A stretch of 64,000 nucleotides of DNA. Source: Actinoplanes auranticolor (GTDB lineage: Bacteria > Actinomycetota > Actinomycetes > Mycobacteriales > Micromonosporaceae). Every line of letters starts with the position of its first letter. Positions within the stretch are counted from its first letter, which is position 1. Shown here one piece after another: positions 9,601 to 13,667 of the stretch. A program made the translations under genes and the position numbers. The stretch lies in assembly GCF_018332655.1 (NCBI RefSeq), contig NZ_BOQL01000084.1:1-64000 (forward strand). The letters are read 5' to 3'. The notes beneath the pieces were generated by a model. It ran no database searches. It worked only from the letters and a program-made list of their open reading frames with translations, and had not been told where the DNA came from.

Positions 9601-10752
9601 TCAGGAAGGGGCCGGGCGGGCCGGTTGCAAGGGCAGGGTCACGTGGATCAGGCAGCCCGGGCGCTGCGCCTGCACCGTTGTGCCCGGCGGAGTGGCGGTC
9701 GGCGGGCGGGCCGGGTCGACCACGGCGATCGTGCCCTGGTGGAGCTGGACCACCCAGTGGGCGATGGCCAGGCCCAGGCCGGTGCCGCCGCCGGTCGCGC
9801 GTTCGCCGCGGGTGAAGCGTTCGAAGACCCGGTCGCGCTCGGCCGGGGGAATGCCTTCGCCCTCGTCCGCCACCGCCACCACCACGTGGTCGTCGTGGCG
9901 TTCCGCGCGGACGGTGACCGTGCCGCCCGGTGGGCTGTGCCGGGCCGCGTTGTCCAGCAGGTTCGCGAAGACCTGGTGGAGGCGTTCGCGGTCGCCCTCG
10001 ATGCGCAGGGCCGGGGCCGAGACGGCGAAGCGGACGTCGTGACCCGCGCCGTCCGCGTTCACCGTTGCCTCGCGGACCACGTCGCCCAGGAAGGCCCGGA
10101 CGTCGATCGGGTCGCTGGCCATCGGCATCACGCCGGCGTCCAGGCGGGAGAGGTCGAGCAGCTCCGTGACCAGGCGGCCCAGGCGTTCGGTCTGGGTCAG
10201 GGCGGTGCGCATCGTCTCCGGCTCCGCGTCGGAGACGCCGTCGACGATGTTCTCCAGCAGGCCGCGCAGGGCGGTGATCGGTGTGCGCAGCTCGTGCGAG
10301 ACGTTGGCGATCAGCTCGCGGCGCTGCCGGTCCGCCGCCGCCAGGTCCGCGGCCATCTGGTTGAACGCTGCCGCCAGCTCGCCGATCTCGTCGCGGGACG
10401 TGGCGCGGACCCGGCGGGTGTAGTCGCCGCGGGCCATCGCCCGGGCCGCGTCGGTCATCTCCCGCAGCGGAACCGTGGTGCCGTGCGCCGCCACCTGCAG
10501 CGTGACCAGCCCCAGGGCGACGGCGATCGCGAACCAGGACAGCTCCACGCGCATGAAGTCCAGGCTCCACCAGAAGATCAGCAGGCCGACGCCGCCGGCC
10601 AGGCCGAGCGCCACCGAAAGCTTGGCCTTGATCGAGCGGACCGGATCGAGCGGGCGGGGCAGCAAGCCGAGCGCGGGGGCCAGCCAGCCCAGGGCCAGGC
10701 TCAGCGGCAGGGAGACCCAGCGCAGCAGCCGTCCCAGTAGCCGCGATCTCAT
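9601..10752 (-). CDS. Membrane sensor histidine kinase
   Basis: A 383-residue kinase. Two hydrophobic stretches lie near residues 10-35 and 45-85, then a HAMP domain (GDYTRRVRATSRDEIGELA), a dimerisation domain with ANVSHELRTPITALRG carrying the phosphorylated His, and an HATPase domain with N-box HQVFANLLDNAARHS, G1 VADEGEGIPP and G2 GGGTGLGLAIAHW. Almost no extracellular sensor loop separates the two hydrophobic segments, suggesting that it senses within the membrane. The ATG overlaps the response regulator's stop in an ATGA junction. Signal unknown. Confidence 0.93.
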   Translation of the reverse strand: MRSRLLGRLLRWVSLPLSLALGWLAPALGLLPRPLDPVRSIKAKLSVALGLAGGVGLLIFWWSLDFMRVELSWFAIAVALGLVTLQVAAHGTTVPLREMTDAARAMARGDYTRRVRATSRDEIGELAAAFNQMAADLAAADRQRRELIANVSHELRTPITALRGLLENIVDGVSDAEPETMRTALTQTERLGRLVTELLDLSRLDAGVMPMASDPIDVRAFLGDVVREATVNADGAGHDVRFAVSAPALRIEGDRERLHQVFANLLDNAARHSPPGGTVTVRAERHDDHVVVAVADEGEGIPPAERDRVFERFTRGERATGGGTGLGLAIAHWVVQLHQGTIAVVDPARPPTATPPGTTVQAQRPGCLIHVTLPLQPARPAPS

Positions 10753-11444
10753 CGTTCCACTTCCAGGGCGTACCCGACGCCGTGGACCGTGCGGATCAGG
10801 TCGGCGCCCAGCTTGCGGCGCAGGCCCTTGATGTGGCTGTCGACCGTCCTGGTGCCCGAGGCGTCCGCCCAGCCCCACACGTCGGCCAGCAGCCGCTCCC
10901 GGGGCAGCACCGTGCGGGGCCGGCCGGCCAGGTGCACGAGCAGGTCGAACTCGGTCGGGGTGAGCCTGGCCTCGACCCCGGCCCGCAGCACCCGGCGCTC
11001 GGCCAGATTGATCTCCAGGTCGCCGAACCGCAGCATCGCGTTCTCGGCCGGGACGGGCTCCTCCGGGGCGGAGCTGCGGCCGGCCCGCCGGAGCAGGGCG
11101 TGCACCCGCGCGGTGAGCTCGCGCATCGAGAACGGCTTGGTGAGGTAGTCGTCCGCGCCGACCGCCAGGCCGACCAGCAGGTCGGTCTCGTCGTCACGGG
11201 CGGTGAGCATCAGCACCGGCACGCCGCGGTCGGCCTGGATGCGCCGGCACACCTCGAGACCGTCGAAGCCGGGCAGCATGACGTCGAGGACGATCGCGTC
11301 CGGCCGGGTGCGCCGGGCGGTCTCGACCGCGCTCGGGCCGTCGCCGGCGATGTCGACCTCGAAGCCCTCGGCGCGTAGCCGGGCGGCCACCGCCTCGGCG
11401 ATGGTGCGTTCGTCCTCGACCACGAGGACTCTCTTTGCCGTCAC
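10749..11444 (-). CDS. OmpR-family response regulator
   Basis: A 231-residue regulator with a receiver domain (acidic pocket VVEDE, phosphorylatable Asp in IVLDVMLPGFDG, Thr in LMLTARDDE, Lys in YLTKPFSMREL) followed by a winged-helix DNA-binding domain (LTPTEFDLLVHLAG, GTRTVDSHIKGLRRKLG, IRTVHGVGYALE). The start is GTG at 11444. It is first in an operon with the kinase at 9601-10752. Its upstream region contains the cluster of DnaA-box-like repeats at 11569-11649, about 125 bases from the start. Confidence 0.95.
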   Translation of the reverse strand: MTAKRVLVVEDERTIAEAVAARLRAEGFEVDIAGDGPSAVETARRTRPDAIVLDVMLPGFDGLEVCRRIQADRGVPVLMLTARDDETDLLVGLAVGADDYLTKPFSMRELTARVHALLRRAGRSSAPEEPVPAENAMLRFGDLEINLAERRVLRAGVEARLTPTEFDLLVHLAGRPRTVLPRERLLADVWGWADASGTRTVDSHIKGLRRKLGADLIRTVHGVGYALEVER

Positions 11445-11568
11445 AGCGCCCCCTCTGCTCCGCCCCGCATCATGCGTTGCCGGGACAAGACCGGCACGCC
11501 CCCGTGACCGCCGATCCGACCCGCGCTGAGCAGCCTATTGATCAGTCGTGCAGGGGCGGGGGTGGCTT

Positions 11569-11649
11569 TGTGGACAACCTGTGAAGATGATCGGCCTGTG
11601 GATAACTCTGGGGATAACGCTGTGGGGTTGTGGATAACCCTGTGGATCG
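11569..11649. repeat. Cluster of DnaA-box-like 9-mers
   Basis: Five same-direction copies of TGTGGAtAA-like 9-mers occur within 81 bases: TGTGGACAA at 11569, TGTGGATAA at 11597, TGGGGATAA at 11609, TGTGGATAA at 11629 and TGTGGATCG at 11641. Read on the other strand, the exact ones are TTGTCCACA and TTATCCACA, the DnaA boxes of Streptomyces and other bacteria. The cluster fills the space between the LytT-like gene's stop and the promoter region of the OmpR-type operon. No dnaA, dnaN or rpmH is nearby, so this is not oriC. A DnaA-titration or DnaA-regulated promoter role is possible. Confidence 0.7.
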
Positions 11650-11668: not shown

Positions 11669-12412
11669 TCAGCGGGTCCAGTCGTGCTTCGCGGCCCGGA
11701 TCAGCTTGTCCTTCAGCTCCCGGGTGTGCCGGCGGCTGACCGGCAGCTCCGCGCCGTCGATCGTCACCACGTAACCCGACTGGGTGAGCCGCAGCTCCGC
11801 GACCAGGCGCAACTGCACCAGGTAGGAGCGGTGGATGCGGACGAAACCGGCGTCCGCCCAGCGCTCGGCCAGCGTCGCCAGCGACACCCGCACCAGGTGG
11901 GACGCGTCGACCGTGTGCAGCCGGGCGTAGTCACCCTGGGCCTCGACCCAGCGCACCGACGACCGGGGCAGCATCCGGGTCGTGCCGGCCAGCTCGACCG
12001 GGATGCTCGGCTCGTCCTGCTGCTTGGCGGGCTGCGGGGGTGGCGTGACGCGCAGGCCGGTGACGCGGCGCAGGGACTCGCCCAGCCGCTCGGACCGGAC
12101 CGGCTTGCGGACGTAGTCGGTCACGCCCAGGTCGAACGCGTCCACCGCGCCGTCGTCGTACGCGGTCACGAACACGATCGCCGGGGGCCGGGCGAACCGG
12201 TGCAGGATGCGGGCCAGCTCCATGCCGTCCAGCCCGGGCATCCGGATGTCCAGGAACACCGCGTCGACCTCGGTGTCCCGCAGCACCCGCAGTGCCTCGG
12301 TGGCGTCGCCGGCCCGGTGCACGAACGCGACCCGGTCGTCGGCGTTGAGCAGGTACGCGAGCTCGTCCAGGGCCGGCGGCTCGTCGTCCACCGCGAGCAC
12401 GACCAGGCTCAT
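11669..12412 (-). CDS. LytTR-family response regulator
   Basis: A 247-residue regulator. Its receiver domain has the acidic pair in AVDDEPPA, the phosphorylated Asp in AVFLDIRMPGLDG, Thr in FVTAYDD and Lys in YVRKPVRSERL. After a Pro/Gln linker (near 125-137) comes a LytTR DNA-binding domain with VRWVEAQGDYARLHT and FVRIHRSYLVQL. The family usually controls cell-wall, virulence or secondary-metabolism genes. The cognate kinase is the next gene upstream, 43 bases away. Confidence 0.93.
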   Translation of the reverse strand: MSLVVLAVDDEPPALDELAYLLNADDRVAFVHRAGDATEALRVLRDTEVDAVFLDIRMPGLDGMELARILHRFARPPAIVFVTAYDDGAVDAFDLGVTDYVRKPVRSERLGESLRRVTGLRVTPPPQPAKQQDEPSIPVELAGTTRMLPRSSVRWVEAQGDYARLHTVDASHLVRVSLATLAERWADAGFVRIHRSYLVQLRLVAELRLTQSGYVVTIDGAELPVSRRHTRELKDKLIRAAKHDWTR

Positions 12413-12455: not shown

Positions 12456-13667
12456 TCATGCCCGTACCCCGGGATGGAATTTCGGCACCCGCATGCTCAC
12501 TTTCGTCCCCGCGCCCGGCGCGGTCTCCACGACGAGCCCGAAGTGGTCTCCGAACACCGAGCGCAGCCGCTCATCCACATTCGAGAGGCCGACGTGCTGT
12601 CCGGCGTCGTCGTCGCGGGCGTTGACCGCCTCGGCGATGCCCGCCGCCAGGACCGCGGGATCCATGCCGACCCCGTCGTCCTCGACCGTGATGTGGCATT
12701 CGGCACCCGCGTCCCGGGCCTCGATGCTCACCATACCGACGCCGGGCTTGCGGGACAGTCCGTGCCGGACCGCGTTCTCCACCAGCGGCTGCAGGCACAG
12801 GAACGGCAGGCCGACCGGCAGCACCTCGGGCGCGATCTGCAGGCGGACCTGCAACCGGTCGCCGAAGCGGGCGCGTTCGATGGTCAGGTAACGGTCGATC
12901 GAGCGCAGTTCCTCGGCGAGCGTGGTGAAGTCGCCGTGGGCCCGGAACGAGTAACGGGTGAACTCGGCGAACTCCAGGATCAGCTCGCGGGCGCGTTCCG
13001 GGTCGGTGCGCACGAAGGAGGCGATGGCGGTCAGCGCGTTGTAGATGAAGTGCGGGCTGATCTGGGCGCGCAGGGCGCGTACCTCGGCGCGGGCCAGCCG
13101 TTCGCGGGAGGAGTCCAGCTCGGCCAGGGCGAGCTGGGAGCTGGCCCAGCGGGCGGTCTCCATGGTCGCCTGGACCAGGCCCGGCGCGGGCTGATCGTCG
13201 GCCACCGCCACCAGCGCGGCCACGGCCTGCCCGTCGGCGCCGGTCAGCGGCGCCACGACCGCGCCGCGCACCACGCAGTCCATCCGGTCGCAGGGCAGGT
13301 CGGTGCCGCTCAGCACGATCGACCGGTTGGCCCGTACGGCCCGGTCGGCCGCCGCAGTGAACTGGGCGCTGTGATGCCCGCCCCGGCCGTCGAAGGCCAG
13401 GCACCGCTCACCGTCGGCGACGGTGAGCCCGGGCGCGCCGACCAGCCGCCGCAGATGCCGCGTGGCCTTGGCGGCCGACGCCGGGGTCAGGCCGGTACGC
13501 AGCGGCTCGGCGGCCAGCGAGGCGGTGTGCAGGACGTCGTACGTGGCCCGCTGTCCCGCCGTGGCGATCCCGCGCCGGGCCCGTAGCCGCAGCACGGCGA
13601 CCACCGCACCGACCAGGGCGGCCAGCACGGCAAGAACCGCCAGCACACTGCCGACCTGACCAGCCAC
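12456..13667 (-). CDS. LytS-type histidine kinase
   Basis: A 403-residue kinase starting at GTG 13667. It has a single N-terminal membrane helix (VLAVLAVLAALVGAVVAVL), a GAF-like sensor region with a CDRMDC motif near 125-130 and a coiled connector. The His_kinase domain contains RAQISPHFIYNALTAIASF with its phosphorylated His, and the ATPase part has LQPLVENAVRHGL, VEDDGVGMDP and GLSNVDERLRSVFG. Unlike LytS proper it lacks the five-helix sensor. It partners the LytTR regulator downstream in one operon. Confidence 0.9.
   Translation of the reverse strand: MAGQVGSVLAVLAVLAALVGAVVAVLRLRARRGIATAGQRATYDVLHTASLAAEPLRTGLTPASAAKATRHLRRLVGAPGLTVADGERCLAFDGRGGHHSAQFTAAADRAVRANRSIVLSGTDLPCDRMDCVVRGAVVAPLTGADGQAVAALVAVADDQPAPGLVQATMETARWASSQLALAELDSSRERLARAEVRALRAQISPHFIYNALTAIASFVRTDPERARELILEFAEFTRYSFRAHGDFTTLAEELRSIDRYLTIERARFGDRLQVRLQIAPEVLPVGLPFLCLQPLVENAVRHGLSRKPGVGMVSIEARDAGAECHITVEDDGVGMDPAVLAAGIAEAVNARDDDAGQHVGLSNVDERLRSVFGDHFGLVVETAPGAGTKVSMRVPKFHPGVRA

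What the first reader, a model, noticed from the sequence alone, without database searches (positions are those of the whole stretch)
11569..11649. Cluster of five DnaA-box-like 9-mers away from oriC
Three exact boxes (TTGTCCACA, TTATCCACA twice, on the minus strand) and two near matches, all in the same orientation within 81 bases, sit between a LytT gene and an OmpR-type operon. No replication genes are nearby. This might be a DnaA-titration site, a replication-timing element or a DnaA-controlled promoter for the two-component operon.
Basis: partly seen in the sequence, partly recalled or inferred. Interest (0 to 1): 0.75.

Follow-up and report, generated by a model that had tools for sequence, protein, structure and literature searches.

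The report
Conserved DnaA-binding array near replication origin
Just behind a regulatory gene, fairly close to where chromosome copying starts, these soil bacteria keep a short, strictly spaced row of docking sites for the replication-starting protein DnaA, most likely to soak it up and hold back extra rounds of copying.

Summary
In detail: the window's only three exact TTRTCCACA sites lie within 69 bases (0.12 expected). But the cluster is two things. (1) A four-box array, 11597-11649, minus strand, starts 19 nt after the lytTR stop codon: weak, strong, weak, strong box at pitches 12, 20, 12. It lies 3' of lytTR in 63 of 63 genus genomes (Actinoplanes group), with exact 20/12 pitch in 60; the last box is invariant in 60 of 60. 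(2) The box at 11569-11577 belongs to a promoter-like 11-bp direct repeat of the OmpR operon and is an exact DnaA box in only 13 of 55 genomes. In 11 of 55 genomes the array is not within 700 nt of OmpR yet remains behind lytTR, so control of that operon is not its conserved role. It is not far from oriC: lytTR lies 106-153 kb from dnaA (median 116 kb) in 18 of 18 genomes measured. Best reading: an oriC-proximal DnaA-binding array that sequesters DnaA, like the S. coelicolor and B. subtilis DnaA-box clusters. DnaA binding is very likely; the replication role is inferred. A new, unusually conserved member of a known kind.

The parts
11641..11649 (-). box 0 of the array, CGATCCACA (weak; always ...TCCACA-like, never TTRTCCACA, in the 60 aligned genomes)
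11629..11637 (-). box 1 of the array, TTATCCACA (strong; exact TTRTCCACA in 52 of 60)
11621..11626 (-). CCCACA half-site in the gap between boxes 1 and 2 (partly conserved)
11609..11617 (-). box 2 of the array, TTATCCCCA (weak; off consensus in 56 of 60)
11597..11605 (-). box 3 of the array, TTATCCACA (strong; invariant in 60 of 60, as is the G that follows)
11532..11537 (-). -10-like hexamer TAGGCT of the OmpR operon (by eye; TARGCT-like in most relatives)
   Evidence: the consensus scan found no sigma-70-type site
11669..12412 (-). lytTR response regulator gene (Response_reg + LytTR), 5' neighbour of the array
12456..13667 (-). LytS-type histidine kinase gene (His_kinase + HATPase_c)
10749..11444 (-). 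OmpR-type response regulator gene (Response_reg + Trans_reg_C)
9601..10752 (-). histidine kinase gene (HAMP, HisKA, HATPase_c), same operon as the OmpR-type regulator

Best explanation
An oriC-proximal DnaA-binding array. DnaA binds the two strong boxes (1 and 3) and, helped by them, the weak boxes 0 and 2, as a head-to-tail row with fixed 12-20-12 pitch. Lying about 116 kb from dnaA, the array is copied soon after initiation, so its dosage doubles early and it takes up DnaA that would otherwise act at oriC, restraining untimely re-initiation. Shown here: sequence, spacing, genus-wide conservation, independence from the OmpR operon, closeness to oriC. Inferred: DnaA binding (from box identity and a canonical DnaA DNA-binding domain), sequestration, and the effect on initiation.
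For: Array in 63 of 63 genus genomes, pitch 20/12 exact in 60. Box 3 invariant in 60 of 60, while the 17 nt after the array are near random (0.36) and third codon positions of lytTR score 0.65. Core pattern absent from the other 395 of 396 phylum genomes. lytTR 106-153 kb from dnaA in 18 of 18. DnaA of this genome matches the solved M. tuberculosis DnaA DNA-binding domain and has GGRDHTTV; TTGTCCACA is the high-affinity box of S. coelicolor and M. tuberculosis (PMC4285127, passage). Clusters near oriC in S. coelicolor and B. subtilis repress untimely initiation (PMC5742627, PMC4585315, passages).
Against: No binding or replication data. Gene order near oriC is generally conserved, so the constant distance may come with lytTR. 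Most other genera of the family lack the array behind lytTR (pairs in 3 of 24 loci, 5 of 55), so it cannot be a universal control. Two strong boxes are a small sink among 66 exact sites in the genome. One review finds no DnaA-box cluster of significant role in B. subtilis (PMC5295017, passage).
Confidence: 0.55

Rival explanations
1. A catalytic DnaA-control site of the datA sort: the ordered DnaA row on the array promotes ATP hydrolysis or nucleotide exchange rather than only binding DnaA.
For: Fixed pitch and a kept weak/strong order suggest a defined oligomer, more than a plain sink would need.
Against: datA needs IHF and an IHF site (PMC5742627, passage), not looked for here; the DARS core has box I opposite to II and III, while here all boxes point one way.
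Confidence: 0.15
2. An operator: DnaA bound here controls transcription of the OmpR-HK operon downstream.
For: In 41 of 55 genomes the array core lies within 700 nt upstream of OmpR (three more, G024, G029, G030, have altered spacing), as in the window.
Against: In 11 of 55 it does not, and stays behind lytTR. The box closest to the promoter is an exact DnaA box in only 13 of 55.
Confidence: 0.08
3. A roadblock or end signal for lytTR transcription: DnaA bound at the 3' end of lytTR stops RNA polymerase or protects the gene's end.
For: The array abuts the lytTR stop codon (0-46 nt in 62 of 63; often the stop codon is part of box 0), and no intrinsic terminator was found on that strand.
Against: In G057 about 430 nt lie between lytTR and an intact array. 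All boxes point one way, and a roadblock would not need such strict pitch.
Confidence: 0.08
4. The boxes are read by another protein than DnaA.
For: No binding data here. Pairs of TTRTCCACA at a pitch of exactly 17 occur in dozens of copies in some relatives, which hints at another use of this motif.
Against: Match to the actinobacterial DnaA consensus and a canonical DnaA domain IV.
Confidence: 0.05

Closest known systems
S. coelicolor DnaA-box clusters (Smulczyk-Krawczyszyn et al. 2006; cluster names D78, H69, H24 are recalled; the paper is not held)
   Same: Actinobacterial, TTGTCCACA-type boxes outside oriC but near it; described in reviews as repressing untimely initiation (passages).
   Different: There binding and deletion effects were shown by experiment; here only sequence. 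Sequence and gene context of D78 were not compared.
B. subtilis oriC-proximal DnaA-box clusters (Okumura et al. 2012; seen through PMC5295017, passages)
   Same: Several clusters outside oriC; removing six gives early initiation.
   Different: Redundant there; here one cluster is unusually conserved in spacing. Single-cluster effect unknown.
E. coli datA
   Same: Non-coding DnaA-box cluster near oriC with conserved spacing and relative position (PMC4585315, passages).
   Different: datA works with IHF; no IHF site was looked for here, and box make-up differs.
E. coli DARS1/DARS2
   Same: Core of a few boxes with fixed spacing.
   Different: DARS box I is opposite to boxes II and III; here all four boxes point one way.

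Membership tests
oriC-proximal DnaA-box cluster (S. coelicolor / B. subtilis kind) | several DnaA consensus boxes outside oriC, beyond chance | tested here: met
   conserved in 63 of 63 genomes
oriC-proximal DnaA-box cluster (S. coelicolor / B. subtilis kind) | lies near oriC | tested here: met
   lytTR 106-153 kb from dnaA in 18 of 18 relatives; not measured in the window's own assembly
oriC-proximal DnaA-box cluster (S. coelicolor / B. subtilis kind) | binds DnaA and deletion raises initiation | not testable with these tools
   needs experiment
E. coli datA | IHF-binding site and IHF dependence | not tested
   no IHF or IHF-site search was made
E. coli DARS | core with box I opposite to boxes II and III | tested here: not met
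   all boxes in one direction; definition
replication origin (oriC) | lies between dnaA and dnaN | tested here: not met
   dnaA and dnaN flank another region, in L067
OmpR-operon operator | stays with the OmpR gene | tested here: not met
   11 of 55 genomes lack the array core within 700 nt of OmpR, though it is behind lytTR

The most novel reading that the evidence does not exclude
The array is one of an ordered set of conserved, fixed-pitch DnaA arrays along one side of the chromosome (roughly 15 kb, 116 kb, 370 kb, 1 Mb and 1.5-1.75 Mb from dnaA) which together sense how far replication has gone and set DnaA availability: an actinobacterial initiation timer built from spaced DnaA arrays rather than the E. 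coli datA/DARS parts.
Probability: 0.2. Interest if true: 0.8.

Novelty: new member of a known kind. Interest (0 to 1): 0.5.

Why it matters
How actinobacteria limit DnaA outside oriC is little known. A 53-bp array with an invariant box and fixed pitch in all 63 genus genomes examined is a small, clean target: changing four boxes would test directly whether sequestration, ordered DnaA assembly or neither controls initiation in a filamentous, sporulating bacterium. My searches for prior description ('DnaA box' with 'Actinoplanes', two papers; DnaA boxes with titration, actinobacteria and chromosome replication, one paper, search listing only) found no account of it; of the Actinoplanes SE50/110 genome paper I saw only the DnaA/oriC passages, which speak of oriC alone.

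Tried and rejected
Considered and rejected: DnaA-controlled promoter of the OmpR operon; intrinsic terminator of lytTR (one terminator-like site, on the other strand and inside the OmpR gene); DARS membership by box orientation; second origin (dnaA and dnaN flank the region in L067). Led nowhere: Rfam on the window gave three tRNAs only and on seven 17-pitch loci nothing; genes beside the 17-pitch pairs look varied (by eye only). Rows dropped: G024, G029 and G030 were left out of the column statistics because their spacing differs. Eight of 63 genomes had no OmpR in the stretch held and are outside the 55. G023 and G058 are outside the distance table for want of exact contig length; percentages for G024, G030, G054 and G191 there use rounded genome sizes, and that for G034 the length of its larger contig. 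In one search a best match to the OmpR block is always returned, so likeness and the count of 13 exact boxes were read from the printed rows. My notebook entry implies 14 of 15 genus genomes for the core pattern; one search shows 13 of 15 (G024 and G029 missed).

Full report
What is there. On the minus strand, 19 nt after the lytTR stop codon, the window reads CGATCCACA (11641-11649), TTATCCACA (11629-11637), TTATCCCCA (11609-11617) and TTATCCACA (11597-11605): four DnaA-type boxes in one direction with pitches 12, 20 and 12, and a CCCACA half-site in the 11-nt gap. A third exact box, TTGTCCACA, lies further on at 11569-11577. These three exact sites are the only ones in 64 kb; shuffles give 0.12 on average and never more than 1, and 300 Markov simulations never put two in one 81-bp stretch. 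Genome-wide there are 66 exact sites against 19 for the reversed control, many of them as pairs and triples.

Conservation. lytTR is a core gene: 60 of 60 genus genomes have it. Behind it the array was found in all 63 genus genomes looked at (the 60 plus three): within 0-46 nt of the stop codon in 62, at 429 nt in G057. The 20/12 pitch is exact in 60; G029 and G030 have 21/12, and G024 has altered spacing with degenerate boxes. In the 60 aligned arrays, column conservation (sum of squared base frequencies) is 1.00 for box 3, 0.92 for box 1, 0.85 for box 2 and 0.82 for box 0, against 0.36 for the 17 nt after the array and 0.65 for third codon positions at the end of lytTR. Boxes 1 and 3 are consensus boxes (52 and 60 of 60), boxes 0 and 2 are kept off consensus (0 and 4 of 60). 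Named loci of this group bear names such as Actinoplanes, Paractinoplanes, Amorphoplanes, Winogradskya and Couchioplanes; 24 of 25 of them show the core at up to 2 mismatches, the exception being Couchioplanes (L193), which still has two exact boxes.

Outside the genus. The exact core pattern occurs in 1 of 396 genomes of the phylum, the window's own, and at up to one mismatch in 13 of 15 genus and 3 of 135 other-genus genomes of the family. Behind lytTR, looser groups of boxes occur in 3 of 24 other family loci (G087, G139, G067) and exact pairs in 5 of 55 named loci; one search shows pairs near lytTR in G060 and G177 (lytTR coordinates). None of 14 loci from outside the family (L118-L131) had two boxes there. 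So the array has scattered relatives in the family, or arose more than once.

Not the OmpR operon. An OmpR ortholog with upstream DNA was available in 55 genus genomes. The printed rows show a similar block in front of it: two 11-bp repeats (CTYCACA... / ...GTYCACA), then a stretch ending in a TCAATARGCT-like -10 (weakest in G005, G018). In 11 of 55 (G034, G038, G002, G057, G003, G013, G026, G020, G025, G011, G033) the array core is not within 700 nt of OmpR, yet is behind lytTR (429 nt away in G057). Direct repeats of 11 bp are what OmpR/PhoB-family regulators usually bind (recalled), so I assign 11566-11587 to that operon. This leaves the four-box array as a unit of its own.

Position. In 18 of 18 genus genomes measured, lytTR lies 106-153 kb from dnaA (median 116 kb), in each case on the upstream side of dnaA. 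In G025 lytTR with its array is inverted relative to dnaA and OmpR is about 17 kb away, but the distance to dnaA is kept. Because gene order near oriC is generally conserved, this distance is not independent evidence of selection on the array's place.

The likely reader. The DnaA of this genome (L067) has the canonical GGRDHTTV motif and matches a solved chain of a DnaA DNA-binding domain, entry 3pvp/3pvv (that these are M. tuberculosis DnaA is recalled). TTGTCCACA is the high-affinity box in M. tuberculosis and S. coelicolor (PMC4285127, passage), and TT(G/A)TCCACA is named for the Actinoplanes oriC (PMC3364876, passage). In this genome's dnaA-dnaN region I count one exact box and eleven at one mismatch, so the array has more exact boxes than oriC; in G048 and G017 that region has several exact boxes, so this does not hold generally.

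How it most likely works. Reviews describe DnaA-box clusters in S. coelicolor and B. subtilis that repress untimely initiation, like datA (PMC5742627 and PMC4585315, passages), while another holds that none with a significant role is known in B. subtilis (PMC5295017, passage). By that analogy the array binds DnaA, doubles soon after initiation and lowers free DnaA. The kept weak/strong order suggests a cooperative row, so a catalytic role as at datA is a live rival; DARS membership fails on box orientation. Binding, sequestration and the effect on initiation are inferred, not shown.

Wider pattern. Four other clusters of the window's genome have orthologous loci with the boxes kept in the relatives compared (4, 3, 3 and 2 relatives): near an ABC1-kinase gene (L055), between lsr2 and clpC (L045), near a RibD_C gene (L044) and beside parS-like sites (L041) (Pfam). 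From the coordinates they lie roughly 1 Mb, 370 kb, 1.5-1.75 Mb and 15 kb from dnaA, on the same side as the array. This is the base of the bolder reading in the section on the most novel reading; it has not been tested against the other chromosome arm, where clusters also occur (for example G017 and G173 at about 130-150 kb).

Noticed in passing
G048 loci L290-L309; own genome G000:C71:63184-63212: TTRTCCACA pairs with a pitch of exactly 17 (GTTRTCCACA-N8-TTRTCCACAGG) occur in 52 of 60 genus genomes, up to 54 copies (G016), with 0 control hits. In G048 a conserved block (AAGATC, AAAATGG, GGGGGNCCCCC...) follows, and on the other side -10-like TAGGGT-type words are seen by eye. Nature unknown; no Rfam match.
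   Followed up: partly
L041, L044, L045, L055 (window's own genome): Other conserved DnaA-box clusters: a 13-pitch pair beside parS-like sites, a 20/12 triple near a RibD_C gene, a pair between lsr2 and clpC, and a 33/21 triple near an ABC1-kinase gene; orthologous loci in relatives keep the boxes.
   Followed up: partly
G062, G139, G177, G093, G141, G069, G116, G145, G060: In 9 of 10 other-genus genomes of the family a box-half-box cluster (TTATCCACA...TTTCCACA or TTCCACA...TTATCCACA) lies about 8-10 kb downstream of dnaA.
   Followed up: no
L187 and L134 (G057): About 400 bp of GC-rich tandem-repeat-like DNA separates lytTR from the intact array in this one genome.
   Followed up: partly
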